The position numbers and the translations under genes are program-made. Shown piece by piece: positions 22,431 to 60,049 of a DNA stretch of 64,000 nt; within the stretch, counting starts at the first letter, position 1; each line of letters starts with the position of its first letter. Below the pieces are notes generated by a model, which worked only from the letters and a program-made list of their open reading frames with translations, did not search any database and was not told the origin of the DNA. The stretch comes from Aphrocallistes beatrix (Eukaryota; Porifera; Hexactinellida; Sceptrulophora; Aphrocallistidae): NCBI GenBank assembly GCA_963281255.1, contig OY725490.1, positions 3,596,001 through 3,660,000 on the forward strand, read 5' to 3'.

Positions 22431-22434
22431 TGTT

Positions 22435-22715
22435 GTGAATGGGCATGGCTGATGGTATGGAGGTCACCGAATGGGGATGAGACTGCCAAGATAACAGCCT
22501 AATCCCAGTCATGTTGGACAGTAACCCTGCACCCGAAGCACTCCTGAAAATGATCCACTCTAACTGTTCCACAGGCTATAGTAGTCTCAGATGTAGCTGC
22601 GGAAAACAAGGACTCAACTGTTCCCAAGCTGCGGACGATGCCAAGATGACAACTGTGGAAAAATGAAAGATTGTGCATCGGATGATGAAACCGAAGATGA
22701 AATTGAAATGTGAAC
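22435..22715 (+). pseudogene. Inverted second copy of the GCDTTS-family C-terminal tail
   Basis: Plus-strand mirror image of 21655-21910: MLDSNPAPEALLKMIHSNCS followed by the Cys-rich stretch, interrupted by a small insertion or deletion around 22635. It belongs to the right arm of the palindrome, so both tails point outward from the centre. Confidence 0.65.
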
Positions 22716-35829: not shown

Positions 35830-36176
35830 ATAGGGGGTTTACAATCTGAGTGAGGTGCTAAACCTACTGATAGTTACTGAATGTGTGCATGCGGCGTGTA
35901 TGTATGCATATGATGGCATGTCTGTATGCATATGATAGGGTGTTACAGAGAATAACCCGGCTAACAGTAGGCAAGAAAGATAGCACCTGACTTAACTTTA
36001 CCTTTAAACGAGATGACATCCTTAGTGCTTTCAGCTCACTAAGGTTCTGCAAGAGTGTATGCTCAGATTACATTACCGGAGCAATGTAATTGAGAGTAAA
36101 ATGCAAATGACTAGAGCGAGGTTAGAACCCGCGACCTAAGTCCTGGTATTCAAACGCCCTAACCACTGTACCACCC
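35830..36176 (-). repeat. tRNA-derived SINE (probable)
   Basis: Read on the minus strand, the head (36176-36111) resembles a tRNA: GGTACAGTGGTTAGGGCG (box A-like), an anticodon-like loop, then GGTCGCGGGTTCTAACC (box B-like). About 270 bp of tRNA-unrelated body follows, ending in a T-rich tail. Exact ends and target duplication are unresolved. Confidence 0.55.
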
Positions 36177-36272
36177 AAGAAATGATGTGACAACATTTCA
36201 CTGTAGGAGATTAAATGACAATTTATTCCGATATTTACATTTCATATTCCTCCGAGTCACTTCCTGGAACTG

Positions 36273-36840
36273 CATGTAGGCGAAGAGTAGAATTGCAATC
36301 AGATTATTACTAATAGTATATGCCAGAGCAACACCCTTAATCTCGAGGGAAAAAACAACAACAAATATATATTGTAAGAGAATATTAAACAGATTCCCAC
36401 TTACTTGTATTGCAAGATTGGGGAATATAATGTTTTGAGATTGCAAGAAATTACAAGCTAGCCTCGAGTAGATGTACTAAGCTGGATAGCTAAAACACAA
36501 AATTGTAGTATAGTCACCTGCATCTTGTGCTAGTTCAGAGTCTCTAGTGTTCTAGTAAATGACAGATTCGACACTAATCCATATTGTCCAAATGGGAAAG
36601 CAAGTGAGTGATGCGATTATCAATGCTCACATGAAGTATGTGCCCATCAGCTTGTAGTTTGAAGCACCGTAAGCTTGAGAGCAAAGTGTGCTCGTCCCAG
36701 CAGCAATTCCCTGTACAACCACGTATGATGTGCAACCTATAATTGATTGACCAATGAACAGAGAACCAACTTTACTTCCTATTTCAGTCCCTGATGTACG
36801 AGATATGAAGATGGTACCTATTTTTGCTTAATAGAATCAC
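36273..36840 (-). pseudogene. MATE transporter fragment, left-arm copy
   Basis: Minus-strand mirror of 52560-53108: SQNIIFPNLAIQVSGNLFNI and KGVALAYTISNNLIAILLFA are readable, with the same stops further upstream (three in-frame stops in the mirrored N-terminal half). After LLFAYMQF the sequence diverges from the right copy, which marks the edge of the duplication inside the gene. Not functional. Confidence 0.7.
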
Positions 36841-37824
36841 TGAAGAAACCTAGTGCTCCTAAAAATCCTAACATGTTGAGGAAGTTCTGTTAGTATCCAT
36901 TTCTGCTTACTCGAAGTAACCCTTAGCTTCTCCACAATATATTGTAACATGAGTAAATATATTTGAAATTTGGATTTGATAGTGGATTTGATAGTCATGA
37001 TAGGATACATAATATGTATATACTTAAGTGCTTCTGTTCATTACTATAAATCTTATGACTTTAAATACTACTTGGTATCTTATGTTTAACAACTGAATCT
37101 CCTCAATTGTTAATACATGTACGGTAATTGAAAATTTATATACGTACTAATATGACGAGGATAATGTGATTTTAATAATCATCATCTTCATCTTCATTTA
37201 TTGTGTATGTGGTTTACACACATATATCTTCAGCTTCCCGGTACTATGGCATATGGCCAACTTTTAGAAATCCGAATCATAATATTATATTCCTCTTATC
37301 GCTATCTAGGAAAAACATGTGAGAGATGATTGAAATACACAATGCTTGTATAAGAATTTCCACAAAGAACTGGCGATACCAAATGATTATAGTCTAGCAC
37401 TGAATATTTGAGCATATTACATTTTCATAGCTGCGCTAGATTATAATCACTTCGTATCGCGGCGTTTTGGTGTGATTTTATGATAGTAACTGCATTGGGG
37501 AGGCGGAAAACGGCTGTAATATTTGTATTATTTAATAATCGGTTTCTAATTAATGCACTAATAAATTTAGCTATAAGTCAACCAAATTTAGTCAAATGTC
37601 TACCAAAAATTTGTTATTACACTGACAAAATTTGTGAAAAAACTAACAAAAATTAATAAAAAGATGATCAAAATTAATGTGATTAGATTGTTCGACTTAC
37701 ATTAGTTTTTAAATAAATCAAATTTGTCTGTAAGCAATTGGTTGGCATTCAGTTCCAGACCCAACTCTATATCTCAAAAGCCAATTTAATTTCAGTTCTT
37801 TTAGATGATTACCTTTTGATTAGT

Positions 37825-38267
37825 ACAAGCGCGCTTCGCTTGCTTGCGCTGCGCGGCTGGCGGACACTTTGTGTCCGATGGAGGCTCCCTTCGGTCGCCT
37901 GGAGCCACATTGGTTAATTATAAGGGAGATAACATCTCTAAATATAGCTGTCTTACTGTTAAAATCGATATCACTCGAGAATCATCAAATTTGTCCATTT
38001 GTAAAATTTTTGATGCGTAATGATGACGTCATAACAGTGATGAGTCATCATTATTTGATGAGAGTTGGATCATATTTGAGATATATTAATCTACACACTA
38101 TGTATATTAAAATTTCAGCCTTCTATCACCTAAAATGGCTGAATTATGATCGAAAAACTGAAATTTCTAATTATAAAAAAGGTGACAATGACGTCATAAT
38201 TCTATGATGAGTCAACATTTTGGTCTATATAAACAAATACACATTAATCGAGTTTTAATAGTAAGGA
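37825..38267 (+). mobile_element. CRE-bearing MITE family, left-arm copy
   Basis: Complete copy from ACAAGCGCGCTTCGCTTGC to the end TTTTAATAGTAAGGA, with two ATGACGTCAT sites. A mirror copy is at the same place in the right arm (45349-45782), so this insertion predates the duplication. Confidence 0.85.
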
Positions 38268-38429
38268 TGATTAATGTGTTTGTTCTGATTATCGGATTTG
38301 GCTACATTATTGGCTTCTCTGTGCGTAATCTTCACTATCGGTATTGTCTCTTAAGAGAATGTAAATATGTTTTAGTTTATTAACCTTAACTCCTCTTCTA
38401 ATTCAGTTTTATTGTTTTTGTAGTCATTA

Positions 38430-39320
38430 TAACAGACGTGTATTAGAACCATGTCTAGATGGGAACACAGAACTTGAATCACACTTAAGTCTGAATATCC
38501 GTGACAGTTTATGTAAGCCCATTTTGTCGATTCAAAAAAGCTGCATTTAATTTTTTAGACAGAAATATTCTTAGTCAGTGGAATATCGATGGACCGAAAA
38601 TGAAACGCGCTACTCTGAGGACTTCCTTTCACGAAATCAATTTTGAATATTGAATCTAGAACCCAAGACTTTCCGACAACATTACAGCTGGCTCTCCCTA
38701 ACCCGAATGATATCAATCCATTGTAGTGTTCCAGACAGTACCACAGCTCTTTACAGATTTCGAATTGAACTTTACTCGACTTACTACTTTGTGGATGTTT
38801 GAGTTTGGGATAATACAGAGGAACTGGATTACTGAACGAGTAATGCTCGATGCATAGTCCGTACAGAGTCTGAAAATTGGAATATTATATGAAATACATC
38901 ATTGGTAGTTAGAGTTATGTCTGAAATATTTGAAAATATTTGAGCAATATCTTCGAAGTGGAGACCACATTTTCAATAATGGAAGATTAGAAGTAGTAAT
39001 TGAACAAAAGATCCTCCGCTTTCTTAGATCGTTTCCTACCTTCAATGCGACCAATAATATTATTAAATGAGTTAGTAATTACTGTTTTATAATTTTCCAA
39101 AGAGAATTTATTGAAATCAGAAGCCTTAGAAATACAAAAGCCACAGAAATAATCCTTTCTTCATGATTATCTCTGAGGTATTTGTCCTCTTCAAGATGTA
39201 CACGGTATTAATGAATATAACTGGATATAATATCCGATTCGACTATATTTAGTTTTTTTACTCAATTCCTCAATATTTCCTTTACTGTTCTTGATTATTA
39301 AAATTTCATCCATGGTCAAA
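38430..39320 (-). pseudogene. Large-GTPase-like (URGCP/GVIN-type) fragment, left-arm copy
   Basis: Mirror of the right-arm copy. The exon-like block 38869-38555 starts after TTTTCAG and encodes TLYGLCIEHYSFSNPVPLYY ... LISFGLGRASCNVVGKSWVL before a stop. The upstream remains (MDEILIIKNSKGNIEELSKK) are interrupted by a small piggyBac-like element. Not functional. Confidence 0.5.
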
Positions 39321-39324
39321 TTAA

Positions 39325-39442
39325 CCCTTAAATTACCTGGGGTCATTTCTATTTAAAGCAAAGACCCCACACTTCTAAGGTTTCCCCGCCCAAAATGACT
39401 TAACCGGAAATGAGTTAGCAAAAATCTAGCGCCATTTAAGGG
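39325..39442. mobile_element. piggyBac-like MITE, present only in the left arm
   Basis: A 118-bp element with ends CCCTTAAATT / CCATTTAAGGG. TTAA lies on one side, TTAT (a likely mutated TTAA) on the other. The right arm reads straight through (gatgttaatttgacc at about 42972), proving insertion. Confidence 0.65.
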
Positions 39443-39480
39443 ATAATTAATAACATCAATTTTTAGGAAATTTTCAGACT

Positions 39481-39830
39481 CTTCATATCCGTTCAAATAT
39501 TGACAGACAATCCTATATTCAATTTCATTTTCTATCGTAGAGTACAATATAATTGATCCTGCAATTTCAGATTTTTGGACGAAATTATATATCGTTATGT
39601 TTTTACTGGCATATCACCACAGTACTTGAAAATATCGAGAACTCGTCTCCCGTTGTTACGAGAAAAAGTAACAAATGTCATTGCAGCGTATTCTTTGACC
39701 TTTTTAGTAGTAATATTCAATTGGTTAGATATTTCGCTAATGGGTATATTCTGGTCAAAAATTTCTTGTTTTTAGTCAAAGGTGACATTTTGAAATACTT
39801 CGAAACTAAAACTTCATCAACTTCATCAGT
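39481..39830. other. Spacer of the inverted duplication, unassigned part
   Basis: Unique-looking AT-rich sequence at the start of the loop between the arms. No recognisable gene. Confidence 0.35.
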
Positions 39831-39832
39831 TT

Positions 39833-40135
39833 TGGGTGCAAAATTGGTCCGGGGGACCAGATTTGGCTGCCAAATTATTCCGGGAGACCAGTTTGGATCG
39901 CGAAATTTGGTTCGGGAACCAGGTTGGCAGCCAATCTGATCCGTATGTCGTATTTTTATCGATTAATCAGGTTGGTGATATAATGAGTTTTTAGAACAAT
40001 ATAAATTAAGTAATTCTAGGACCTATCACGAAAAAGCTGGTTCGGGGCCAAAAATGGTACGGGGGGACCAATTTTGGCAGGCCAAAACTGGTCCATCCCT
40101 GCCAAAATTGGTCCGGGCAATTTTTTGTGCCATTA
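39833..40135. repeat. MITE with repeated AATTGGTCCGGG motif
   Basis: Begins GCAAAATTGGTCCGGGGGAC and ends CCAAAATTGGTCCGGGCAAT. Variants of GGGACCA and TTGGCAGCCAA are scattered between. It shares its centre with 34340-34430. Ends approximate. Confidence 0.5.
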
Positions 40136-40715
40136 ATTGCCTACACTAGAGCAGTCCTCTCCTCATAGGATGTGATGACTTTGCAATCACTCTAGGCGGT
40201 ATTTATAGGCTAATGGGGCTTTACTCCATGCGTATATACTTAGTCCCAGTTATTAAGTACGTATAGTATTTATAAACCCTATATTTATTTGTAGTTATAT
40301 ATTGAGTTAAATACTAACACTTATATAATACGTATTATACTCAATATAACCAACCATGTTCATTCAAGTCAACTGCCCCGTTTTTGGCGGACGTCCCGCT
40401 TTTTGGATTTTATGTATAATATTTTTCTATTGCGTCCCCCAAGTCACACAAAATTCAACACTGCGTCCTGATTATATCATGGCTCAAGTTGGCATGTATG
40501 CATGTTAGAACTAAAAAAATGTTTGTCGGCAGACTGATAGGGCAGCTCCATCAAGTGACTTGGCACGTGAGATATGAATATCCTAAGGCATCGAGACTAC
40601 TCAATTTATGATAACTATTCACATTCTTAAGTTCTAAGTACGGTAATGGATTCTACACATTAAAATACCCAATATTAGCTATTGAGAGACATCGTATTTA
40701 AAAATATAAATTATC
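40136..40715. other. Unassigned stretch in the loop
   Basis: No gene or repeat end that I can support. Confidence 0.35.
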
Positions 40716-40719
40716 TTAA

Positions 40720-42648
40720 GGATACCGCCCGTGAAAAATCCATAGGTTTGGCTTACAGCATATATCAAGAATAGAGATATATAAGATGTTAAGCGTGGGC
40801 AGGTAGTGCAATTAAAAAATATTGAGACATGCCAAACAGTTTTTGGTTCACATTTCTAGTTTTTGAATTACAGCGTCTCAAAGTCGGTTTTTTCCGTTTT
40901 TCCCTAGCACATCTTAATGGTAAGCCCTCCTGCACTCTGTGATTTTTTTAAAGCACATGTTTGGATCAAATGCTTCGAAAATTTATTCATAGATAGTCTA
41001 TCATATTTGCCACTTCATAGGACCAAAAGAAAGTTAAAATTTTAAAAATTGTAAATTTTATCGGTGTCCGAATAAAAAGGGCCAAAAAACGGCGAAAAAA
41101 GCCCGATTTTCTTTGCAAATCAGCAATAAAATCACAAATTTATAAAATATCAAAAATTGAGTGGTCCTACGCTCATCGCCTAATGATATGGAACAACTCC
41201 TGAAATTTTCAAACCTCTATCTCAAAGCAATTTTGAGTTAAAATTTTTGAAAGACGGTCAATTTTGGAATTTTAAAGTCCCGAGATATAGGGATTTGAAG
41301 TTTTGATGGTAAGAACGATGTAAAATGAGCTATTAACGAAAAATAAAAGCATCCATGGACATTTAATCGCGTGTATACTAATGAATTAGATGTATTCCAA
41401 CAGATTTTGGTGAAAATAGCAAAATTATACTGAAAATTCACAAATTACCTTGAGGCCCCTAACCCCGAATATTTTGAACCAATTAGGGAATGTAAATCAT
41501 ATTCCTAGCAGTACAATGTATAATTCATCGGTTTAGAATGAATAAAGAGCTACCAAAAAGTATATTGGGAAGTTAGAGCGAGAGTCTACGACTTTTAGTT
41601 TTCAAGTTAGGATTTTCGAAAAATGCTACGTCATCACGTGATAAAAATTTGAAACTTAGCATTCCATTCCATGTAGTACATTTATTATTTAAGAATCAGA
41701 TATATACCGTCTTGAAAAGTGTATTAGGAATTGAGAGCTAAGAATTTTGGTGTATATTTCCCGAGATATGGAGGAATCTGTTTTTGGACCATAAATGGGG
41801 GGGCTTTGACCGAAATTTGGAGATAAATGCTTTGAACTTCCAAAATAATCATGTTGGGTGCTTCAAAGTTTCTGTATACATTGCTAGTGACTACTGCATA
41901 GTTTTTTGAGTATAATAGCTACTTTTGGGAACTTATTTCATGACAAGATTCACCATTTTCTAATATATTCAAAGTTCTCCATAGAATTTGTATTACAACA
42001 AAAACGATGATTAGTCAAGAAATATTTACTTTTTGACAAAGAGATGTTTGAGGAACCTATATATTATCATATATATCCTTTCATTTAAGATTATTATAGA
42101 TTATATATCTTCAATAGTTTTTAAGCATTGACATCGAGCACTTTGGGGGCCATAGAGTGGTTTGATGTCCGAACTTTACCTACAATATACTATAACTTAC
42201 GAACTAATGGTCCGATCTGAACAAACTTTTTTTAAAATGTTCAGAATTTTTTTCTATACACAATAGCTAATATCACAACGGCCATTTCCCGAGCATTTTA
42301 GAAATGAAGTCCCTCATAAAGATATTTTTGATTGGATTTCAGGTGCCTCTTTTTCTAAATTCATCTGTTTTATAATATTTAAAGGGGCCAAAACCATTTT
42401 GAGGTTCGTATAATTGAAAAAATATCAGATAAGTTAGAAAATAATTGATGAATGCGCCGCAAAATCACGAATAACTTTCCGATTTTTAGTACGCCTGAGC
42501 TTTAGGTGCCCAGTTCTAGAATATCAAAATAAATACCGTCCAACAAGTACGATTAGATGGTAGACTACTCAATAATCCGATGGAATTGACAATAAAAAAT
42601 TCCACAATTTTTTTTAATGTTTTGCGATGTTTTTCGAGGGCGGTATCC
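40720..42648. mobile_element. Kolobok-like non-autonomous element, 1.93 kb
   Basis: Inverted ends GGATACCGCCC / GGGCGGTATCC flanked by TTAA on both sides (40716-40719, 42649-42652). TTAA targets with GG-starting ends fit Kolobok better than piggyBac (CC-starting). The interior has no reading frame above about 70 codons. It is rich in short A+T palindromes and ATATCTC-type motifs, so it is a non-autonomous passenger. Confidence 0.75.
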
Positions 42649-42659
42649 TTAAAAGGTGC

Positions 42660-42930
42660 GAAAATATGTATACTCATAGCCTACTGTATATAAGGCCTCA
42701 CAGTAACTTGCGGATTTGGGACTAGGGATGCGGTAGAAGATGGTTGAACTAATACATGAGCTGCCTTAAATCATTAACAAAGCACAATAGAGCGTAAGAA
42801 TGTATTACCAACATATATTAATATGGTGTCAAAGTATCCATATCCGCTGTTAAAATTTAGATTAGTCATCATATGGTTGCGCAATAGGATATATTTGTGA
42901 CAAATTTGGTGATTTTCAGAGGTCGTTTAA
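42660..42930. repeat. FB1 arm fragment
   Basis: ATAGCCTACTGTATATAAGG through GATTTTCAGAGGTCGTTTAA matches FB1 1380-1625. It lies between the Kolobok-like element and the right arm. Confidence 0.8.
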
Positions 42931-43154
42931 TACTAGGTTTGCAAGATAGTCTGAAAATTTCCTAAAAATTGATGTTAATTTGACCATGGATGAAGTTTTA
43001 ATAATCAATAACAGTAAAGGAAATATTGAGGAATTGAGTAAAAAACTAAATATAGTCGAATCGGATATTATATCCAGTTATATTCATCAATACCGTGTAC
43101 CAGAGTTGCACGCGGGTCGATTTTTGAAACCGCGGCCCGCAGCTAAATTTTCGG

Positions 43155-44062
43155 TGCTAGGACACCTTGCCGAAAGACATCTTGCCGAAAGACATCTTGC
43201 CGAAAGACATCTCGCCGAAAAGACATCTTGCCGAAAGACATTGTGCCGAAAGGACATCTTGCCGAAAGGACATTGTGCCGAAAGCCATTGAATATCAAAT
43301 TGTAATAATCATAATTAACAACTAAGTGTCGCATTAACTGGTTCAGAGTTTGAATAAGTTTATTATTAAGTGTTAAGAAGTAATAACAAGGAAAACAAAA
43401 ATATTAGAAAGATAAGTTTTGTGATATGCCGCGCAGATATTCTAGATGTGGAATGTATATATATTCATCAACCATCTCTAAACGCTTGTTTAATTGGAGG
43501 TACTTCTTCTTTGATTGGGGCAGTTGATGTCCGCTTCTAACTTTTTCCAAGGTAATTTCACTATCACTCTGTTCCATAATAATTTTCCGAATTAGTTTGG
43601 AGACAGAAGGATGAGTTGTATTTATTCTAATATCGACAGCCCTATGCCAACCCTCTACAGAATTATTCGTCCGTGGAAGAGCTCGTTCCACTCTATCTCT
43701 GACGTTCCATAGTTCGATTGGAAATAAAGGGCGACGTCTTCTTCCATGATGTTCTAAACCTATCCATGTCTTCTCAAAATAATGGAGAAAATCGCTTAAG
43801 TCATCAACTAGCTCATCAGATAGTGAATCGAAGTTCTTCATAACATGCAATTACATCAATAGCCGGAACAAACGCTAAGGCCCGAAATTTCTTCTCCGGA
43901 TTCTCATTATAATAATAAGTAATCATCAAACCACATACTTTCGGCAAGATGTCCTTTCGGCAAGATGTCCTTTCGGCAAGATGTCCTTTCGGCAAGATAT
44001 CTTTCGGCAAATGTCCTTTCGGCAAAATGTCTTTCGGCAAGATGTCTTTCGGCAAGGTGGGC
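43155..44062. mobile_element. Element with tandem CTTGCCGAAAGACAT ends
   Basis: Both ends consist of seven to eight tandem copies of a 15-17-bp unit (CTTGCCGAAAGACAT on the left, the complement on the right, 43935-44060). The unique centre encodes a transposase fragment. Tandem-subrepeat inverted ends are a known style of MULE-like MITEs. The exact insertion site in the hAT element is not resolved. Confidence 0.7.
43404..43925 (-). pseudogene. MULE transposase C-terminal fragment
   Basis: Minus strand. NPEKKFRALAFVPAIDVIAC and YEEL come first, then after one frameshift SDELVDDLSDFLHYFEKTWI, RRRPLFPIELWNVRDRVERA, LPRTNNSVEGWHRAVDIRIN and HPSVSKLIRKIIMEQSDSEI. The order ELWNV--R---LPRTNN-VEGWHR-----HP---KLI is typical of the end of Mutator-like transposases of the insect and aphid type. 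Only the last third of a transposase is present. It could be a pack-type capture. Confidence 0.75.
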
Positions 44063-45348
44063 GGACACGAAATTTTCGGCCCGCAAGAAGCCCGTATAAC
44101 TATTTTTAGCCCAATTTGTAAGTTACTAACTATGGAGAGACACTTAGGGAATCCTTTTATGGGAGTGAGTTTCTGAAAACACAAATAAGTGGAAACTAAC
44201 AAAGTTAAAAGTCATATACGTAAGTATTCCTTAATTGGTACCTCGTGACAATTACAAACATCGTCTCAGTTGTCATCGCGGGGAGCCTTGCCAAGATTTC
44301 CGGCCCGCGGAGCCCGCAAACTATAATATTCGGCCCGCACGGGCCGCGGGCCGATAAGAAAAGTCGGCCTGCGGGCCGAACCGGTCCGCGTACAACTCTG
44401 CCGTGTACATCTTGAAGAGGACAAATACCTCAGAGATAATCATGAAGAAAGGATTATTTCTGTGGCTTTTGTATTTCTAAGGCTTCTGATTTCAATAAAT
44501 TCTCTTTGGAAAATTATAAAACAGTAATTACTAACTCATTTAATAATATTATTGGTCGCATTGAAGGTAGGAAACGATCTAAGAAAGCGGAGGATCTTTT
44601 GTTCAATTACTACTTCTAATCTTCCATTATTGAAAATGTGGTCTCCACTTCGAAGATATTGCTCAAATATTTTCAAATATTTCAGACATAACTCTAACTA
44701 CCAATGATGTATTTCATATAATATTCCAATTTTCAGACTCTGTACGGACTATGCATCGAGCATTACTCGTTCAGTAATCCAGTTCCTCTGTATTATCCCA
44801 AACTCAAACATCCACAAAGTAGTAAGTCGAGTAAAGTTCAATTCGAAATCTGTAAAGAGCTGTGGTACTGTCTGGAACACTACAATGGATTGATATCATT
44901 CGGGTTAGGGAGAGCCAGCTGTAATGTTGTCGGAAAGTCTTGGGTTCTAGATTCAATATTCAAAATTGATTTCGTGAAAGGAAGTCCTCAGAGTAGCGCG
45001 TTTCATTTTCGGTCCATCGATATTCCACTGACTAAGAATATTTCTGTCTAAAAAATTAAATGCAGCTTTTTTGAATCGACAAAATGGGCTTACATAAACT
45101 GTCACGGATATTCAGACTTAAGTGTGATTCAAGTTCTGTGTTCCCATCTAGACATGGTTCTAATACACGTCTGTTATAATGACTACAAAAACAATAAAAC
45201 TGAATTAGAAGAGGAGTTAAGGTTAATAAACTAAAACATATTTACATTCTCTTAAGAGACAATACCGATAGTGAAGATTGCGCACAGAGAAGCCAATAAT
45301 GTAGCCAAATCCGATAATCAGAACAAACACATTAATCATCCTTACTAT

Positions 45349-45782
45349 TAAAACTCGATTAATGTGTATTTGTTTATATAGACCAAAATGTTGACTCATC
45401 ATAGAATTATGACGTCATTGTCACCTTTTTTATAATTAGAAATTTCAGTTTTTCGATCATAATTCAGCCATTTTAGGTGATAGAAGGCTGAAATTTTAAT
45501 ATACATAGTGTGTAGATTAATATATCTCAAATATGATCCAACTCTCATCAAATAATGATGACTCATCACTCTGTTATGACGTCATCATTACGCATCAAAA
45601 TTTTACAAATAGACAAATTTGATGATTCTCGAGTGATATCGATTTTAACAGTAAGACAGCTATATTTAGAGATGTTATCTCCCTTATAATTAACCAATGT
45701 GGCTCCAGGCGACCGAAGGGAGCCTCCATCGGACACAAAGTGTCCGCCAGCCGCGCAGCGCAAGCAAGCGAAGCGCACTTGT
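45349..45782 (-). mobile_element. CRE-bearing MITE family, right-arm copy
   Basis: Mirror of 37825-38267: TCCTTACTATTAAAACTCG at one end, GCGCACTTGT at the other, with both CRE-like sites kept. Inserted before the inverted duplication formed. Confidence 0.85.
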
Positions 45783-46623
45783 ACTAATCAAAAGGTAATC
45801 ATCTAAAAGAACTGAAATTAAATTGGCTTTTGAGATATAGAGTTGGGTCTGGAACTGAATGCCAACCAATTGCTTACAGACAAATTTGATTTATTTAAAA
45901 ACTAATGTAAGAGGCATTCCATATCATTTCACCCACCCTAAATAAGATTTCCTCCGAATCGTTCAAAAATTTCAATTTGCAACAACAATATAGGGTAAGG
46001 ATAACCTGAAATTTTTGGCGCCAAAACCCTTCTGGAAGCCAAATTATAGCACGTACAAAAATTCGACTTTTGAGTGTCGGACTCATTTGGTCCCAATCGA
46101 TTTTCCACTTGAATTTAAGACTATTGTCTCGTAGTAAAGTATTATAATGACATTTATAACTTTCTAGGTATAATTTACCTCGTAGAATTCAAATCCGGCA
46201 CTAAAAATACCCCAAAGTGGCAAATTAATGGTCAATTTTTGTTTTTAATGTAAAAATCCGACATTTTCATACTAAATCTTCTTCAGGTCGAAAAAAAAAT
46301 CTTTCAAAAAAGTTTTGTCTGATACTTACAGAAAACCTAGCAAATAGATTGTTATTTAATATATATTAAAACTGGAGAGGTTTTTTTTCTTATTTTCAAA
46401 ATACATTACCATTCGCAAGCTATGCTAATAAATTGGAAAAATGCTGATTAGTTGTTTGTCAGCCGCAAGAATTATGATATAATTGATTTTTATTTCCTCT
46501 TAAATCACTTTTTAAAATTTTAAAATCATTATCCTGCGAATAAATTGAAATTACAAAAATCGATGGTATGATTAATTACTTTCTCTCTATCCTACATTTT
46601 CATCAGTGATATTGTATACAGCA

Positions 46624-46660
46624 TGGCAACACAAGAGGAACAATTGGTATGCACTCCAGG
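46624..46660 (+). other. Mini-exon in the left terminal repeat
   Basis: ATGGCAACACAAGAGGAACA ... ends CCAG followed by the donor GTAAGA, encoding MATQEEQLVCTP plus one base. An identical mini-exon lies in the right repeat (50937-50973, minus), directly upstream of the transposase gene. The repeat therefore seems to contain a promoter and first exon. Confidence 0.4.
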
Positions 46661-47079
46661 TAAGATGAATTAGAAACCACAAATAATTGTGTACTCACCC
46701 CTGAAATATAATATTATTCTACACAAGTAAGTGTGTTGTGAAGATTCATAATTAGTTAAATACATTCAGATCACCATGGTAACATAAAATATTTTCGAAG
46801 ACTCCGCTAACTCCAGTATATAGGAATTTGATTAATTTCACTACAACATGAAGGTTTGATCAACAACATTCGTATTAAAAAAAGATTTTAATTCTCCACC
46901 ACGCCGAAAGGGGAAATCAACTCATTTATTTAGTTGGGTGGAACCCTGCTAAATACACGGTTCAAAAAATGGGTTCACACAATTGATAATTATTGACTCG
47001 TATGTATAGTAAGTATATAAATTCTCCATATAATATATCTTAGTAAGTAAGGATCACTGTTGTTTTTTCATTCATCAGG

Positions 47080-50000
47080 TCATCTTGACTTAAATTTTTG
47101 GATAATTGAATTAATATCTGCTGTAGGAAGTATATATTGACGGCTAGATGCTGAGGTTGTTAATGGTGCATTTATCTTGCACAGAATATTAGTGATTGGG
47201 ATCAAACATGCATCCTCCCTGCTAGGCCACTTAAATATTCTCGTTCGAGGGTTAAAATGCATTAGTTTTATTTCTGTGTCTCCTTCTTCATCAAACACCT
47301 GCTCAATAATGCCAATCCACCAATTGTTGTCATAGACACAAGCCACATAATTTCCAATTGAGGCTAAGGGAAACACTTGCGCGTCTTTTTCAAAATCGAA
47401 TCTGAGTGAAAAATTTTCTTGATCACTTGTTCGCATAATATCGAGCACAGACGAATTCAATGGTCTGAATCGGTGAAAACTTCTTGTTCCTGGGATTGTC
47501 TTGGCACTCGCAAATCTAGCTTGTAGAAATTTCCGTTCCGTATCCACGTCGCTTTTGGACAAATAAAAGAAGGTTATGTCGCTACTAAGTAACTTACAGA
47601 AATTAAACATTCCTTCAGGAGTTATAATTTGGTTATTATGCGTTCTTTTCAGACTTTCGATTGCTGTAATACGTTTAACAGTTCCTCCTATGCCATCACA
47701 AGGAGACTTCCCATGTGCAGTAGCAAAAAAATTCCACTCGGCATCCAATCCAAAGTCGTCCTTATGTTTACACAAATTAATGAAATTGTACTTATTTTTG
47801 TACTGAGCTGCACATCCGTCTGAAAAATATTCAATTTTACTGATCTTGGGAATATACTTTTTGACGTAGCTGAGGAGCATTTTTTGAATTAAATAAACCA
47901 TTGAAGTATCGTGGTGCATATCATCAGAAATAAAGCAGAATGATTGGTGCTTCACAGATTCTGAACTTTGTAATAAATTACAATTGGGTGAAGTGTTGCT
48001 TGCTGCTTGGACCAGTGATAGCTTTGGATTTCATCTTGTATAACGAAGGTAAAGTTTTCGGCGAAGTCACCAAGACAAATTAGTGAATTTTCATTAAGAT
48101 TTTCCTTACGCATTTTAAGATATTTCGATTGTGCTTTTGCAGTATAGGAGTGTGTTGTGAGGGTGTCAATTGAACTGACAATCATATCTATTAAGTGATG
48201 GAGAGAAGTTGAGTCAGATATGAGTGTAGTTCGATCTGTACCAATCCATTGTTGATAGACAATGTCAGAATCCGCCTGAGTTTCGAGAGAATCTTAAAGA
48301 TGATCTCTAAGTTTGTCAATCCCAGGACACTTCTCACACCTGAAAATTATATATTTGTATACATAACGATTTTTCCCCATATTTTCTGCATAATTTCAAA
48401 AGTAATATGATTAATTTTAATAATTACAGAAAGTTTATTAACACTACCTGTGTATCATGCAATCTCTGTTTTCTTGTGCACACACAACGTAATTCATCAA
48501 GTCTGAGTAATTTTCTTTAGTTTGGATTGCATCAACTAACAACTTTACATTTTGATGAATGGCACAAACACATACTGAATGAGTTCCACTTGCACCTGGT
48601 AAAATGCACCATTTAGGGCGTAGAGAGCAAAATTTAGAGAATCCGATTTTAACCTAAAAAAATAGAAATTAACTACATAGATTTTATATTTTAGAGTCTT
48701 GTAATTAAATAATATAATATAACGTATGTATGATGCTAAATACAGTCGACTCGATAATGTGAACTTTACAAGGCAAAGGCAGACTAATTACCTCAGGGTG
48801 ATTCTGAAACTTCTGCAAAAACTGTTGGTATAGTTCTTTTAAGCTAAGTAGCATTAGACGTTTTTGTTTATACTGCTTTCTCCCGACACTGACAACATCC
48901 TTTTGACCTAAATGTAGTAAAAAATTGGTTAAGTAAATAATATAACGAGATATGTTGAATTACTAATTGTACAGTCACACCCCACATAAATGCATGAACA
49001 TGAGAATATACTAATTTGTAAGGCGCCTAAAACACTCTCTACGCCCTTCACGAGCCAATACAAAAATTCAAGGGAACTCTCCACGAGTTACAAATAAGTT
49101 TTTTAGACAAAAACAAATAAACAGTAAATACTGCTACTAACCAGGAATCTCACGCGAATATTCATCATCCTCATAATACAATAGAGTGATGTCTTTGATT
49201 TCCTTAGATAGTGCTTTTCCCTTCTTGGGTTGTGGAAATGATAGAATGCCTTTTTCGTGAAATAGCATCTTAGCTTGTTTTACCTGATATTCTGTTACCT
49301 ATACGAAAATAAATAATGTTAGGGACTCGACACAATCGCATAACTAAACAAGGCACTTATACCGTCTATAAAATGCCATAATGACTAATTCATTTTTTCT
49401 AGCCTGCGTTTTAATAGCTCTCTAAAATAGTATTTTCATAGGGCAAGATAGGGATGATTCGGAAAAAACTCTGCAAACTCAGGGAAACAAATAATTTAGC
49501 TCCTTATTACACAAATGCATTTCAAAAATAGCTATCCAAAAGGGCAATATTTGTTTGATGAAAGTCTATCTTTAGTTTTAGAAATATTTACGATAATTTA
49601 GAATTTATTAAATGTTTACTCTATCAAACAATTACCTCGAAATATTCTTGAACTTTATTTTTGGACCAGTTGCTTGGCGCGAGAGTTAACAAATGAATTA
49701 TAGTTCTTTTATCTTCTGACTCGTGTATTTTAGCTTTAACCATTGCCATTAAGCTATCAAAGTTGGCTGCTTTTTCAATAATGTCACTATCCTGAAATGA
49801 AGGGTCATATAGTTTAAAACTTGTGCCTCTACCAGTATGTTCGATGTTTGAATCTTCTCTAAAATTGAAAATACATACCATTATAAACTCAAAAATAGAT
49901 TCCATTATAAACTCATTTATCTAAAAACTTTTATCCTTAAAATACCTTGGTGATTTAGATACAAGTGCTGAATTAAATAGTTCCAGTTCGAGAGGTGCAT

Positions 50001-50654
50001 TGGATGTTGCTAGGTGTACTTGTTTAGTGAACTTTTTTTCGATACGTTTGAGTTCGATATCTGGGGAATCGAACCCCGGTCCTGTATATTTTGTTTCTTC
50101 TTCTTCAACTTTGTTCTCGTCAAAATTCCGCAACGTTTCAAACATTTGAATCTTGCACCGGACGCACAATTTTTTTCCAGGGATCATGGTAACATTCAGA
50201 GTTTCGCTCAACTTTAGAGATTCGTCTAAACGCATTTCTCTTCCTTGCCCTAAACATTTATAGTTACAGGTTAGTCACGATTTCCAACTTTTAATTATGC
50301 ATCCTATTAAAACGAATTAGAGGAATATCTATGAATACAAATTTTGTTGAGACACTACTTACCTTTGGATAAATAGAAGACTTTTCTGTGGAATCCGAAA
50401 GGATTTGCGCAGGATCTTTGCAACTGCACATAAGAAGTTAAATACATTGCGAAGTGATGGCCACAAATATTATCAAGGGTGGTTAACTTTAAGCTTGTGC
50501 GTAGCACAATTAGCTGTTGATCGTTTTGATCGAGGTCACCAAACATCATGAGCTTATCTTGTTTGATATAGTAGGATTTTAAATGGCAAGGAGTTTCCAG
50601 AAGGATGCCAACTGTACAATTTGGGAGTAGAGACTCAATAGAGAATGAAGCCAT
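47080..50654 (-). CDS. Transposase gene of the 5.8-kb transposon (7 exons, nearly intact)
   Basis: Exons read from GT/AG sites and frame: 50654-50363, 50249-49946, 49858-49636, 49298-49142, 48907-48792, 48653-48448 and 48339-47080. Start at MASFSIESLLPN (ATG 50652-50654); all junction phases agree. Landmarks: a KKLCVRCKIQMF cysteine pair in exon 2, VTEYQVKQAKMLFHEKGILS and YYEDDEYSREIPG in exon 4, FSKFCSLRPKWCILPGASGT in exon 6. The last exon has CLGDFAENFTFVIQDE, FISDDMHHDT, IEYFSDGCAAQYKNK and FFATAHGKSPCDGIGGTVKR. The conserved acidic residues (D in GDFAENF and SDGCAAQ, D in PCDGIGG) suggest an RNase-H-fold catalytic core; that is inference. I recall close relatives in hydra and aphids. 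Defects: one TAA at 48294-48296 and one frameshift near 47965. Confidence 0.75.
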
Positions 50655-50936
50655 CTTACGTATAATAATAGTTGATTGAAGTTAGAGCAACGATTGATAT
50701 GAAATAGAATTAATTGTTTTACAGGTCTATTATATTATATTATAGTATATACGTATAGTAATATGTTTGCTGAGTCTTCGAAAATACGATATAAATAACT
50801 ATCGTATTTTATGTTACCATGGTGATCTGAATGTATTTAACTAATTATGAATCTTCACAACACACTTACTTGTGTAGAATAATATTATATTTCAGGGGTG
50901 AGTACACAATTATTTGTGGTTTCTAATTCATCTTAC

Positions 50937-50973
50937 CTGGAGTGCATACCAATTGTTCCTCTTGTGTTGCCAT
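50937..50973 (-). other. Mini-exon in the right terminal repeat
   Basis: Minus-strand twin of 46624-46660, with the same ATG and GTAAGA donor. It lies about 280 bp upstream of the transposase ATG. Joining it to the next exon would need an acceptor of the right phase, which I could not fix; it may belong to an alternative 5' end. Confidence 0.4.
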
Positions 50974-51689
50974 GCTGTATACAATATCACTGATGAAAAT
51001 GTAGGATAGAGAGAAAGTAATTAATCATACCATCGATTTTTGTAATTTCAATTTATTCGCAGGATAATGATTTTAAAATTTTAAAAAGTGATTTAAGAGG
51101 AAATAAAAATCAATTATATCATAATTCTTGCGGCTGACAAACAACTAATCAGCATTTTTCCAATTTATTAGCATAGCTTGCGAATGGTAATGTATTTTGA
51201 AAATAAGAAAAAAAACCTCTCCAGTTTTAATATATATTAAATAACAATCTATTTGCTAGGTTTTCTGTAAGTATCAGACAAAACTTTTTTGAAAGATTTT
51301 TTTTTCGACCTGAAGAAGATTTAGTATGAAAATGTCGGATTTTTACATTAAAAACAAAAATTGACCATTAATTTGCCACTTTGGGGTATTTTTAGTGCCG
51401 GATTTGAATTCTACGAGGTAAATTATACCTAGAAAGTTATAAATGTCATTATAATACTTTACTACGAGACAATAGTCTTAAATTCAAGTGGAAAATCGAT
51501 TGGGACCAAATGAGTCCGACACTCAAAAGTCGAATTTTTGTACGTGCTATAATTTGGCTTCCAGAAGGGTTTTGGCGCCAAAAATTTCAGGTTATCCTTA
51601 CCCTATATTGTTGTTGCAAATTGAAATTTTTGAACGATTCGGAGGAAATCTTATTTAGGGTGGGTGAAATGATATGGAATGCCTCGTAA

Positions 51690-52600
51690 GTCGAACAATG
51701 TAATCACATCAATTTTGATCATCTTTTTATTAATTTTTGTTAGTTTTTTCACAAATTTTGTCAGTGTAATAACAAATTTTTGGTAGACATTTGACTAAAT
51801 TTGGTTGACTTATAGCTAAATTTATTAGTGCATTAATTAGAAACCGATTATTAAATAATACAAATATTACAGCCGTTTTCCGCCTCCCCAATGCAGTTAC
51901 TATCATAAAATCACACCAAAACGCCGCGATACGAAGTGATTATAATCTAGCGCAGCTATGAAAATGTAATATGCTCAAATATTCAGTGCTAGACTATAAT
52001 CATTTGGTATCGCTAGTTCTGTGGAAATTCTTATAGTACAAGCATTGTGTATTTCAATCATCTCTCACATGTTTTTCCTAGATAGCGATAAGAGGGATAT
52101 AATATTATGATTCAGATTTCTAAAAGTTGGCCATATGCCATAGTACCGGGAAGCTGAAGATATATGTGTATAAACCACATACACAATAAATGAAGATGAA
52201 GATGATGATTATTAAAATCACATTATCCTCGTCATATTAGTACGTATATAAATTTTCAATTACCGTACATGTATTAACAATTGAGGAGATTCAGTTGTTA
52301 AACATAAGATACCAAGTAGTATTTAAAGTCATAAGATTTATAGTAATGAACAGAAGCACTTAAGTATATAAATATTATGTATCCTATCATGACTATCAAA
52401 TCCACTATCAAATCGTATTTACTCGTGTTACAATATATTGTGAAGAAGCTAAGGGTTACTTCGAGTAAGCAGAAATGGATACTAACAGAACTAAAGTTCC
52501 TCAACATGTTAGGATTTTTAGGAGCACTAGGTTTCTTCAGTGATTCTCTTAAGCAAAAATAGGTACCATCTTCATATCTCGTACATCAGGGACTGAAATA
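51690..52600. other. Non-coding part of the right arm
   Basis: Mirror of 36800-37696. It holds the likely 5' flank of the MATE pseudogene and a decayed first exon near 52440-52560. Nothing else recognised. Confidence 0.45.
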
Positions 52601-53982
52601 GGAAGTAAAGTTGGTTCTCTGTTCATTGGTCAATCAATTATAGGTTGCACATCATACGTGGTTGTACAGGGAATTGCTGCTGGGACGAGCACACTTTGCT
52701 CTCTAGCTTACGGTGCTTCAAACTACAAGCTGATGGGCACATACTTCATGTGAGCATTGATAATCGCATCACTCACTTGCTTTCCCATTTGGACAATATG
52801 GATTAGTGTCGAATCTGTCATTTACTAGAACACTAGAGACTCTGAACTAGCACAAGATGCAGGTGACTATACTACAATTTTGTGTTTTAGCTATCCAGCT
52901 TAGTACATCTACTCGAGGCTAGCTTGTAATTTCCTGCAATCTCAAAACATTATATTCCCCAATCTTGCAATACAAGTAAGTGGGAATCTGTTTAATATTC
53001 TCTTATACAATATATATTTGTTGTTGTTTTTTCCCTCGAGATTAAGGGTGTTGCTCTGGCATATACTATTAGTAATAATCTGATTGCAATTCTACTCTTC
53101 GCCTACATCCAATTCACGGCTATACGCTTTACATTTTCTCTATTCTCGTGGTATAATTTATCTGGCTGGTATCACTTTTTGAAGAATGGATTTATTGGGA
53201 CACTTCAGTTCATGATTGATATATTAAGTGCTCGAATTGTGCCTTTAATATTAATCGGATTTATCCTCAAAGACGCGATCAACTCGCATTATTGGGGATA
53301 TTTTATCTTTCTGTCGGTTTCTTATGGGTTGGGTGCTGGAGCTAATGTACGTATTGCTAATCTTCTTGGGGAAAATAATTTGGAAAGAGCAAAGAAATCG
53401 ACTATAATTGCTATTTGTTACGAATTAACAATAGTGACTGGATTTAGCGTTGTCATTTTCTCTTTTTCATATTACATATCATACATTTTCACATCCGTAG
53501 AGGATATCAGAAAACAAATTGAATTTGGGATAAAAATTCTAACCATCGCTTTGCTATCAGATGTAGGAAGTTGTTTAAAAGGCATATGTAATGCGTGCTG
53601 CCTTCAGTATTTTGCTTTAGCAAGTGAAATTATCTTCTTTTTCTTCATATCTGTTCCTCTCGGTTGTGGACTGTCCTATTTTGTGACTTGGAAAGCAATG
53701 GGATCCTACATATTCCTGAGTATCGGATATTTAGCTTCAGCTATAACATTAATCTTAATTTTATTCTGTTATGATTGGCAGAAAATTGCAAAAAAGGTAT
53801 CACAAAATATTTCACAAATAAATCAGGAAAAGGAATGCAGTGAAACTGATCTGAATAACAATCTCGCTATTTCATCAGCAGAGCTTTCCAAATGCAGAAT
53901 ATTCCTGCTAGTTTCAAGGTATCTGATTATCTTGGTAATTAGTATTATTATGTTTATTTTGGTCTGTTTCTTTGAAATTTAG
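52601..53982 (+). pseudogene. MATE-family transporter, 5' half broken, 3' half open
   Basis: GTEIGSKVGSLFIGQSIIGC, TSTLCSLAYGASNYKLMGTY (the MATE AYGA-N----G motif) and SQNIIFPNLAIQVSGNLFNI are readable, but three stop codons and at least one frameshift lie between 52750 and 53030. From about 53080 to the TAG at 53980-53982 the frame is open for some 290 codons. It encodes about six membrane helices with GLGAGANVRIANLLGENNLE, the second-half counterpart of the MATE motif. MATE proteins export cations and drugs by H+ or Na+ antiport. An alternative start (ATG near 53212) could give a half transporter, but a dying gene is more likely. The boundary between broken and open parts nearly coincides with the end of the inverted duplication (53108). 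Confidence 0.7.
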
Positions 53983-56230: not shown

Positions 56231-56408
56231 GGCATGAAAAAATATTAAAAGAAATCATATGGTATATCGATTGGAATTTCTAATAAACTTTTCCAAGATT
56301 GAAAATATTAACATTACATAGTTTTTTCCATTTTACAAAATATTGGTGCAAATACATTAAAAAACAGATGAATATTCTCATTATACATATCAATACTACA
56401 TACATAAA

Positions 56409-57592
56409 TCCTTACTATTAAAACTCGATTAATGTATATTTATTTATTTACAAGCGCGATTCGCTTGCTTGTGCTGCGCGGCTGGCGGACACTTTATGTC
56501 CGCCTGAAGCACCCTTTGGGCGCCTGGGGTCACATTGATTAATTATAACGGGGATAACATCTCTAAATACGTCTGTTCTACTGTTATAATCGATATCGCA
56601 CGAAAAATCAAAAATTTTGATGTATAATGATGACGTCATAACAGAGTGATGAGTCATCATTTTTTGATGATAGTTGTATCATATGTGAGATATATTAATA
56701 TACACATTCTATTAAAATTTCAGCTTTCTAACACTTAAAACGGCTGAGTTATGTTCGAAAAACTGAAAATTCTAATTATAAAAAAAGGTGACAATGACGT
56801 CATAATTTCATGATGGGTCGACATTTTCGTCTGAACTCAGAACTTAGTGGAGCCATTGCCAAAAGACTCCCACATGCCAAAAATTAGCTTTCTGTGCTTG
56901 GCAGTTTCTTAAATCAATTCGTTACAGATATAGTATATATATATACTATATACACATATTATACAGGGTGTTTCAAAAGTTCTGCAACAAATGTTGCTGA
57001 TGTATTATACATAGACAAATAGATCGAATATCCGATACCTCTTTTTAATCAAAAATAGGGAGGATTATCTTAATTATTTTGCATTCCCAATGGCCTGCTT
57101 TTCTCAATTTATTTGCAATGATTAATCATATATATCGTTGTCTCGTAAAGAATATTTTTTATCTCAATAAAAAGCTCATATCCATGGTACATTTTACGGC
57201 TGTACTTAAAAATATTCGATCTTATCGAAGATTTCCGTTGCATAAATCAAAAGTAATAATATTATATTAGTATTATGAATCAATGACAGAATATAGAAGT
57301 GATTAATGTAATATTTCATCAGAAAAATAGAGATCTTCAAACTTGACACTTTTGAGTTCCAAATTTTGTAGTCAATGGTATGTAATTATGTATTTAAAAT
57401 TTTATAAGAAATGTCTTTTGTGTAATGAGTTGAGCTCATTTCTATGCAAGAAGGGTGCTAGATTTCATTTATGGAGGCTAATTTGGACTAAAACCAAATG
57501 ATCTTAGTCAAATTAACAAAGTAAAATTGGTTGTTGCAGAACTTTTGAGACACCCTACTGTATATAGATTAATCGAGTTTTAATAGTAAGGA
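56409..57592 (+). mobile_element. CRE-bearing MITE family, complete copy with nested mariner MITE
   Basis: Both terminal repeats are present: TCCTTACTATTAAAACTCG at 56409 and its complement ending at 57592. The body runs from ACAAGCGCGATTCGC to ATTCGTTACAGATATA and is interrupted at 56964-57560. Two ATGACGTCAT sites and one GATGAGTCATC site are kept. Confidence 0.85.
56964..57560. mobile_element. mariner/IS630-type MITE
   Basis: Ends CAGGGTGTTTCAAAAGTTCT (left) and AGAACTTTTGAGACACCCT-ACTG (right), in TA (56962-56963, 57561-57562). GGGTGTTTCAAAAGT ends are typical of mariner-like elements. No transposase frame. Confidence 0.8.
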
Positions 57593-57596
57593 TATA

Positions 57597-57842
57597 TCTG
57601 TAACGAATTGATTGAAGAAACTGCCATGCACAGAGAGCTGAATTTGGCATGTGGGAGTCTTTTGGCTATGGCTCCACTAAGTTCTGATCTCAGACGAAAA
57701 TGTCGACTCATCATGGAATTATGATGTCATTGTCACCTTTTTATAATTAGAAATTTCAGTTTTTCGATCATAATTCAGCCATTTTAGGCGATAGAAGGCT
57801 GAAATTTTAATAGAATGTGTATATTAATATATCTCAAAAATC
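57597..57842 (-). mobile_element. CRE-bearing MITE family, truncated copy
   Basis: Begins TGTAACGAATTGATTGAAG (family end reversed) and breaks off after AATATATCTC at about 57838. It follows directly on the previous copy. Confidence 0.8.
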
Positions 57843-57849
57843 TATCTCA

Positions 57850-58440
57850 TTAGTTTACAGGCTATTTAATGTCCTTAAGACTTTCATTCCTGATACTATC
57901 TACTCATAAATATAACAATATAATGATTGTATTCTTTATTAATTTTCAAAATCATTCAGAACAACTATATTTGCTTTCATTTGTAGCAAACTACGTTAAA
58001 ATAACAGTAAAATAGATGCTCGTGATAGTTTGCTCTCATCTCTCTCGACACTTCAGCTCGTATTCTACTCTCGATCTCAAGAAACCTGAATTAATGACCA
58101 TAATGTCATTAATCCACTCTGACCTTCTTTTTAATTTGAGATCAGAGAACTGTGGCTTCGATCAGGAGACAAGATGCAAAATTTTAGATGAGTGAGTAGC
58201 TTACGTTCAAAACGTTACTTTCGAGTACGAAATCGACCTAATAAGTAGTCAGCTAATACCTCCTCTCCAGCATTGATTTATTTCAACACATCGTACTTTT
58301 CACGCGCGCCAAGCTGTGAGGACTTCTTTTCTCCGGAGACAATCGTGTTGCTGCGATGTCTTCACTCTTCCCACACCGTACTATACAGAAATGTTTCTAC
58401 AGTAGAGGAAGTCTTGCCTTGTTTTTCAGGATTTCAGTAG
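57850..58440. other. Unassigned stretch
   Basis: No gene or repeat recognised between two MITE copies. Confidence 0.35.
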
Positions 58441-58442
58441 AA

Positions 58443-58976
58443 TCCTTACTATTAAAACTCGATTAATATTTGTTTATATACAAGCGCGCATCGCTTGAGT
58501 GCACTGCGCGGCTGGCGGATACTTTGTGTCCGCCAGAGGCGCCCTCTGGGCGCCTGGGGTCACATTAATTAATTATAAGGGAGATAAAATCTCTGAATAC
58601 GTCTGACCTACTATTTTAATCGATATCGCACGAAAAATCACCAAATTCGTCAATTTTTGAATTTTGATGTGTAATGATGACGTCATAACAGAGTGATGAG
58701 TCATCATTTTTAGATAATAGTTGCAGCAAATGTGAAAAATATTAATATACATATTCTATTAAAATTTCAGCCTTCTATCACTTAAATGGCTGAGTTATAG
58801 TCGAAAACCAAATTTCTAATTATAAAAAAGGTGACAATGACGTCATAATTCCATGATGAGTCGACATTTTCGTCTGAACTCAGAACTTAGTGGAGCCATA
58901 GCCAAAAAGACTCCCGCATGCCAAAAAGCAGCTTTCTGCGCCTGGCAGTTTCTTCAATCAATTCGTTACAGATATA
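58443..58976 (+). mobile_element. CRE-bearing MITE family copy
   Basis: TCCTTACTATTAAAACTCG, ACAAGCGCGCATCGC and the full body to ATTCGTTACAGATATATA. The distal terminal repeat is replaced by the start of the next copy, so it is joined head to tail. Confidence 0.85.
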
Positions 58977-58978
58977 TA

Positions 58979-59358
58979 TCCTTACTATTAAAACTGGATT
59001 AATATTTATTTATATATACGTATATATATATACAAGCGCGCTTCGCTTGCTTGCGCTGCGCGGCTGGCGGACACTTTGTGCCCGCCAGAGGCGCCCTGTG
59101 GGAGCCTGGGACCACATTGATTAATTATGAGGGAGATAACATCTCTAAATACGTCTATCTTACTGTTATAATCAATATCGCTCGAAAAATCACCAAATTT
59201 GTCAATTTTCAAAATTTTGATGCGTAATGATAACGTCATAACAGAGTGATGAGTTATCATTTTTTGATGATAGTTGCATCATATGTGAGATATGTTAGCA
59301 TACAGATTCTATCAAAATTTCAGCTTTCCATTTCCTATAATGGCTGAGTTATGCTCGA
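58979..59358 (+). mobile_element. CRE-bearing MITE family, truncated copy
   Basis: Full head and middle. One CRE-like site is altered (TAACGTCA). It ends at GGCTGAGTTATGCTCGAAT where a pogo-type fragment begins. Confidence 0.8.
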
Positions 59359-59435
59359 ATTCCGGTCCTGCCAAAAGTGGCCCGATTAAGCGGCTGACCC
59401 GTTTAAACAGTGACCATATTAAGCGGATTCGACTG
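59359..59435. mobile_element. pogo/Tigger-type MITE fragment
   Basis: The right end AAGCGGATTCGACTG, followed by TA, and internal GATTAAGCGGCTGACCCG relate it to 34441-34628. The left end is missing. Confidence 0.7.
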
Positions 59436-59445
59436 TATATATATA

Positions 59446-60040
59446 TCCTTACTATTAAAACTCGATTGTTATTTGTGTATATATATATATATGTAACGAA
59501 TTGATTGAAGAAACTGCCGGGCTCAGAAAGCTGATTTTTGGCATGTGGGAGTCTTTTGGCTATGGCTCCAGAAAGTTCTGAGTTCAGAGCAAAATGTCGA
59601 CTCATCATGGAATTATGACGTCATTGTCACATTTTTAAAAGTTAAGCAACACAGTTATTCGGGCATAACTCAGCCATTATAGGAGATAGAAGGCTGAAAT
59701 TTTAATAGAATCTGTGTACTAACATACCTCACATATGATGCAACTATTATCAAAAAATGATGACTCATCACTTTGTTATGACGTCATCATTACGCATCAA
59801 AAATTTTTAATTCACAAATTTGGTGATTTTTCGAGTGATATCGATTAGCACAGTAGGACAGACATATTTAGGGATGTTATCTCCCTTATAATTAACCAAT
59901 GTGACTCCAGGCGACCGAAGGGAGCCTTCGGCGGACACAAAGTGTCCGCCAGCCGCGCAGCGCAAGCAAGCGCGAAGCGCGCTTGTATACAATATGTATA
60001 TAGAGTTATAGACACATTAATCGAGTTTTAATAGTAAGGA
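59446..60040 (-). mobile_element. CRE-bearing MITE family, complete reversed copy
   Basis: Both terminal repeats are present (TCCTTACTATTAAAACTCG at 59446; TTTTAATAGTAAGGA ending at 60040), with the body reversed from TGTAACGAATTG to GCGCGCTTGTA. Both CRE-like sites are kept. The best reference copy in the window. Confidence 0.9.
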
Positions 60041-60049
60041 TATACATAT

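What the first reader, a model, noticed from the sequence alone, without database searches (positions are those of the whole stretch)
36273..53108. Giant inverted duplication whose arms hold each other's empty insertion sites
A unit of about 3.1 kb (part of a MATE gene, a MITE, part of a GTPase-like gene) is present in opposite orientations around a 3.5-kb loop. The right arm gained a 5.8-kb transposon and a hAT element, the left a 118-bp element. In each case the other arm shows the clean target. The insertions are therefore younger than the duplication and the shared MITE is older, giving an internal relative chronology. The alternative is a misassembly that joins two haplotypes head to head.
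Basis: seen in the sequence. Interest (0 to 1): 0.8.

Follow-up and report, generated by a model that had tools for sequence, protein, structure and literature searches.

The report
Inverted duplication with later transposon insertions
A 3-kb piece of an animal-like genome holding two damaged gene fragments lies twice in opposite directions around a 3.5-kb spacer, probably the scar of a small chromosomal inversion, and jumping-gene insertions in one copy show their empty sites in the other.

Summary
A 3.08-kb unit lies at 36274-39480 and, inverted, at 42948-53108, around a 3,467-bp spacer. Without inserts the arms differ by 19 substitutions in 3,062 aligned bases plus 8 indels. The right arm carries a 5,775-bp transposon (TSD TTAC, TIRs identical over 881 of 881) and a 1,300-bp hAT-like element (TSD GTACACGG) with another element nested in it. 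The left arm carries a 118-bp inverted-repeat element (129 bp net). Each site lacks the insert in the other arm.

The right arm runs on into the rest of the MATE gene; the left copy stops at about 36267. The left arm keeps an open frame into the spacer, while the right inner border lies 17 bp from a cut-off MITE (weaker). This fits a microinversion with a duplicated end, by staggered breaks or template switching, as described in Drosophila.

A simple head-to-head haplotype join is disfavoured: the flanks compared share only short dispersed repeats. Assembly error cannot be excluded without reads. The chronology is likely, not forced. New member of a known kind.

The parts
36274..39480 (-). Left arm: MATE pseudogene piece, shared MITE-like repeat, unidentified gene 'G' piece, with a 129-bp private insertion
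42948..53108 (+). Right arm, same unit in opposite orientation, interrupted by two private insertions
39481..42947 (.). Spacer (loop) between the arms, 3,467 bp; holds an open frame continuous with the left arm at its left end and a truncated MITE at its right end
45911..51685 (-). 5,775-bp DNA transposon with 881-bp identical TIRs (45911-46791, 50805-51685), TSD TTAC (45907-45910, 51686-51689); strand is that of its longest reading frames
   Evidence: single TTAC at 37697-37700 in the left arm
43101..44400 (.). 1,300-bp hAT-like element, ends CAGAGTTG, 8-bp TSD GTACACGG (43093-43100, 44401-44408)
   Evidence: single target copy at 39198-39205 in the left arm
43155..44070 (.). 916-bp element nested in the hAT-like one: inverted arrays of a 15-16-bp unit at both ends, flanked by 9-bp direct repeats AATTTTCGG; its 148-codon frame looks like a MULE transposase C-terminus by recall only
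   Evidence: no convincing Pfam hit in its two frames scanned
39325..39442 (.). 118-bp element with inverted ends CCCTTAAAT/ATTTAAGGG; net length difference to the right arm 129 bp
37815..38268 (+). Shared MITE-like repeat (left copy), older than the duplication
45338..45792 (-). Shared MITE-like repeat (right copy)
52996..53979 (+). MATE transporter C-terminal half, open over 328 codons, running across the right outer border at about 53108-53115
   Evidence: Pfam MatE 5.2e-10; aligns to residues 200-470 of MATE1, PDB 9r10
36267..36476 (-). Left MATE copy ending at the left outer border; homology to solved MATE chains stops at codons 68-73 of the frame
42675..42930 (+). MITE truncated 17 bp from the right inner border; of four other copies aligned, the one at 12106 runs about 150 bp further to its second inverted end and the others at least about 65 bp further

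Best explanation
A genuine inverted duplication left by a small (about 3.5-kb) inversion whose one end was duplicated. In the ancestor the order was left flank, spacer in the opposite orientation, one copy of the arm, rest of the MATE gene. Staggered breaks with fill-in, or replication template switching, flipped the spacer and left the 3.1-kb neighbouring segment at both ends, with some loss at a breakpoint. The duplicated piece was already a damaged MATE fragment plus an unidentified gene fragment and a MITE-like repeat. Afterwards the copies decayed separately, and transposons inserted in one or the other. Shown from the sequence: arms, inserts, target duplications, shared stops, MATE border. 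Inferred: the inner border, the event itself and the order of events.
For: Arms differ by 19 of 3,062 bases. The right MATE frame runs across the outer border and aligns to MATE1 (9r10) residues 200-470. The left MATE homology stops at the border, and the MATE C-terminus is not found in the 11.3 kb of left flank compared. The frame at the left inner border stays open 45 codons into the spacer, and 0 at the right one. A MITE is cut 17 bp from the right inner border. Three in-frame MATE stops are shared by both arms in the 236-bp stretch compared. The outer flanks compared share only short dispersed repeats. A similar architecture is described for Drosophila inversions (passages of PMC3355041; PMC7584159).
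Against: An open run of at least 44 codons occurs at 9.2% of 40,000 random positions in this window, so the inner border rests on modest evidence. The similarity between the spacer and arm reading frames is marginal (229 of 5,000 shuffles reach it). The missing part of the cut MITE was not found at the left outer border, so a deletion must be assumed. No read data, second individual or relative was available.
Confidence: 0.58

Rival explanations
1. Assembly artefact: a stretch of the other haplotype was built in next to its allele in inverted orientation, so that the arm differences and insertions are allelic.
For: 19 substitutions in 3,062 plus three insertion differences look like ordinary allelic variation. 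No reads were available, and no genome is held.
Against: A simple head-to-head join predicts homologous outer flanks, which were not found in the stretches compared. Two separate precise false joins (about 36267 and 42948) would be needed. The window holds no N.
Confidence: 0.22
2. An inverted copy of the arm was inserted 3.5 kb away, and the spacer later flipped by recombination between the arms.
For: Gives the same final borders. Spacer flipping between inverted repeats is discussed for Drosophila subobscura (passage in PMC7584159). The arms are similar enough to recombine, and an 884-bp identical run (P about 0.003 under uniform placement) fits later exchange.
Against: Needs two events where one suffices.
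Confidence: 0.15
3. The arms are the terminal repeats of one giant transposon.
For: They are long, near-identical and inverted around a spacer.
Against: The right outer border lies inside a continuous MATE frame, so it is no element end. By eye, no target duplication is seen at the outer borders. The spacer's matches elsewhere in the window are to short repeats, chiefly the cut MITE; most of the spacer was not scanned for a transposase (only 39458-39771 was).
Confidence: 0.03

Closest known systems
Drosophila mojavensis inversions 2h and 2q (PMC3355041, passages)
   Same: Single-copy DNA duplicated in inverted orientation at the ends of an inverted segment (7.1 kb; about 1 and 4.3 kb), with genes partly duplicated and TE insertions near or between the copies
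   Different: Those are fixed chromosomal inversions polarised against D. virilis; here the spacer is 3.5 kb and no outgroup was available
Microinversion at the Drosophila subobscura O7 proximal breakpoint (PMC7584159, passages)
   Same: A 2,026-bp microinversion with a terminal inverted duplication, explained by staggered breaks or alternatively by template switching
   Different: The microinversion's own duplication is 59 bp (that of O7 about 534 bp); here 3.1 kb
hAT-type non-autonomous elements
   Same: 8-bp TSD with CAGAGTTG ends (type recalled)
   Different: No transposase domain recognised by Pfam in the frames scanned
MULE-type elements
   Same: 9-bp direct repeats around array-like inverted ends (type recalled)
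   Different: No MULE domain recognised by Pfam
Sola- and Kolobok-type DNA transposons
   Same: 4-bp target duplication (Sola2: AT-rich 4-bp TSDs in PMC3627910; Kolobok: TTAA, purine-purine start, in PMC9587614)
   Different: TSD here is TTAC; TIRs are 881 bp against 12-21 bp in the Sola2 elements of that paper; the transposase was not classified

Membership tests
Inversion with duplicated breakpoint segment (staggered breaks) | Originally single-copy DNA present in inverted orientation at both ends of a segment | tested here: met
   'originally single-copy' rests on this window alone, and the arm includes a repeat
Inversion with duplicated breakpoint segment (staggered breaks) | Each copy keeps one different ancestral border | tested here: inconclusive
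   Outer border supported; inner border only suggested
Inversion with duplicated breakpoint segment (staggered breaks) | Spacer inverted relative to an uninverted relative | not testable with these tools
   No relative found
Haplotype-joining artefact, simple head-to-head | Outer flanks are alleles of each other in inverted orientation | tested here: not met
   25.0-36.3 kb against 53.1-64.0 kb: six matches of 30-87 bp, dispersed repeats
Haplotype-joining artefact, any kind | Half depth or no spanning reads | not testable with these tools
   no reads held
hAT superfamily (1,300-bp element) | 8-bp TSD and short TIRs of CAG type | tested here: met
   the CAG rule is recalled
hAT superfamily (1,300-bp element) | hAT transposase | tested here: not met
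   No transposase in the three overlapping frames of 100 codons or more (42950-43288, 43407-43850; 43819-44211). Expected of a non-autonomous element, so it is called hAT-like only
Sola superfamily (5,775-bp element) | 4-bp TSD | tested here: met
   TTAC
Sola superfamily (5,775-bp element) | Sola transposase | tested here: inconclusive
   No convincing Pfam hit in the four frames scanned; single-sequence model of one of them has mean pLDDT 31.4
Kolobok superfamily (5,775-bp element) | TTAA-specific TSD | tested here: not met
   TSD is TTAC; rule from a passage of PMC9587614

The most novel reading that the evidence does not exclude
The arms still exchange sequence and flip the spacer. The 884-bp difference-free stretch is then a conversion tract, and the substitution count understates the age, while private insertions persist as fixed marks. 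Such a structure would be a natural two-copy recorder of transposition against gene conversion, and a long hairpin RNA source if transcribed.
Probability: 0.12. Interest if true: 0.45.

Novelty: new member of a known kind. Interest (0 to 1): 0.3.

Why it matters
It is a clear worked example of how a small inversion can duplicate neighbouring DNA and how reciprocal empty sites order transposon insertions inside one locus. The ratio is striking: three large insertion differences for 19 substitutions. It also shows that border anatomy can argue against a simple haplotype join without reads. The kind of event itself is already described.

Tried and rejected
Searched for relatives of the MATE C-terminus (288 residues beyond the arm) in viral and genome contigs and of one transposase frame in viral contigs: no relative confirmed. 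A 25-base stretch of the multi-copy MITE gave 0 matches in both collections. No genome is held for the window. No Rfam match at gathering threshold and no tRNA by ARAGORN.

Tested whether the left flank joins directly to the reversed spacer through the cut MITE: no significant match of the missing MITE part there. The 17-bp stretch between the cut MITE and the right arm has only a 3-mismatch match, in the same place of both arms, which is not convincing. A repeated motif between the spacer frame and the arm frame is marginal (229 of 5,000 shuffles). The transposase model had mean pLDDT 31.4 and was not used for any fold search. The giant-transposon idea was rejected on the MATE border. Literature searches. 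Papers seen by passages only: PMC3355041, PMC3627910, PMC7584159, PMC9587614; other papers only as listings. No search was made for whether this very locus is in print.

Full report
Observation. Self-comparison of the window confirms a long inverted duplication: left arm 36274-39480, right arm 42948-53108, spacer 39481-42947. With the three private inserts and one copy of each duplicated target set aside, the arms are 3,078 and 3,074 bp and differ by 19 substitutions in 3,062 aligned bases (13 transitions) plus 8 indels. Of the 27 differences, 18 lie at or before position 37700 and 9 after it. The longest difference-free run is 884 bp, reached in 0.34% of 20,000 uniform placements, so the differences are unevenly spread.

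Insertions. The 5,775-bp element (45911-51685) has TIRs identical over 881 of 881 bases and is flanked by TTAC on both sides, while the left arm has one TTAC at 37697-37700. The 1,300-bp element (43101-44400) has CAGAGTTG ends and an 8-bp duplication GTACACGG, present once in the left arm at 39198. Inside it, 9-bp direct repeats flank a 916-bp element with inverted arrays of a 15-16-bp unit. One of its frames resembles a MULE transposase C-terminus by recall only; Pfam gave nothing convincing. The left arm carries 129 extra bases, of which 118 lie between CCCTTAAAT and ATTTAAGGG. The remaining 11 bases make the target duplication uncertain, TAA or TAAC. At that site the right arm keeps an 89-codon open frame when the hAT-like insert is skipped, which suggests that the left state is the derived one.

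Older features. The MITE-like repeat is present at the same place in both arms and related to copies at 56.4-60 kb. The MATE piece carries the same three in-frame stops in both arms in the 236-bp stretch compared, so it was probably dead before the duplication, although the C-terminal 328 codons to the right are open. The right copy has a leucine at a residue where the left has glutamine and scores lower against MatE (24.5 against 29.9 bits); it also has 2 extra bases that break the frame which the left copy keeps. The left G copy has a stop and a 1-bp indel that the right lacks. Both copies have therefore changed independently.

Borders. The right MATE frame runs through the outer border and aligns, with only small gaps, to residues 200-470 of MATE1 (PDB 9r10, E 8.5e-16). 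The left copy aligns to the preceding part and stops at the border (best E 9.8e-06, MATE1 residues 173-237). The MATE C-terminus is not found in 25.0-36.3 kb (best hit 10 residues, E 8.2). At the inner border the left arm's frame stays open for 45 codons into the spacer, the right arm's for none. At least 44 open codons are seen at 9.2% of 40,000 random positions, so this is only suggestive. On the right side of the spacer a MITE is cut after 256 bp, 17 bp before the arm; the copy at 12106-12510 is 405 bp with both inverted ends, and three further copies also continue past the cut. This marks that junction as a likely rearrangement join.

Interpretation. One arm keeping the outer and the other keeping the inner ancestral border is what an inversion with a duplicated end produces. 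Passages in PMC3355041 and PMC7584159 describe such inversions for Drosophila, with staggered breaks or template switching as mechanisms and with spacer flipping between inverted repeats as a further event. A copy insertion followed by flipping gives the same end product and cannot be told apart here. A simple head-to-head haplotype join would make the two outer flanks homologous; comparison of 25.0-36.3 kb with 53.1-64.0 kb gave only six matches of 30-87 bp, which are dispersed repeats. A more complex assembly error with two false joins remains possible.

Chronology. The order MITE, then duplication, then insertions is the simplest. For the 5.8-kb element it is supported independently by TIR identity (0 of 881 against 19 of 3,062 between arms, two-sided Fisher p = 0.012), with the caveat that TIRs can be homogenised. 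It is not forced, because an insertion polymorphic before the event could be missing from the copied allele, and exchange between arms could also have moved or removed marks.

Source. Reading frames such as an NHL-repeat protein (17237-18508; Pfam NHL 4.4e-19; nearest solved chain Drosophila Thin) and a MATE nearest to MATE1 among solved chains fit an animal genome. A sponge such as Amphimedon is my recollection only and was not tested.

On rereading the calls I corrected the left target position of the 5.8-kb element, the statement of how far other MITE copies run, and the name of the MATE1 chain, and scanned one further frame of the hAT-like element.

Noticed in passing
1029-1836 and 2916-3728: Another inverted pair, 97.2% identical over about 810 bp around a 1.1-kb spacer, containing a MITE in each arm; the adjoining 1835-2215 recurs inverted at 7226-7609 (borders printed). 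Probably transposon-derived, not resolved.
   Followed up: partly
20637-23257: Long inverted parts (20637-20884/23012-23257 and 21334-21943/22405-23021, 89-90%) of what looks like one large transposon.
   Followed up: no
56389-60541: Dense cluster of diverged copies of the MITE-like repeat shared by the two arms, in both orientations.
   Followed up: partly
36100-36190: Stretch that looks like a tRNA-derived SINE head by eye; ARAGORN and Rfam at gathering threshold found nothing in the window.
   Followed up: partly
17237-18508: NHL-repeat protein; nearest solved relatives Thin, TRIM71 and TRIM2.
   Followed up: partly
36229-36268 and 8091-8130: 40-bp match (82.5%) ending right at the left outer border, hinting at an old repeat cut there.
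   Followed up: partly
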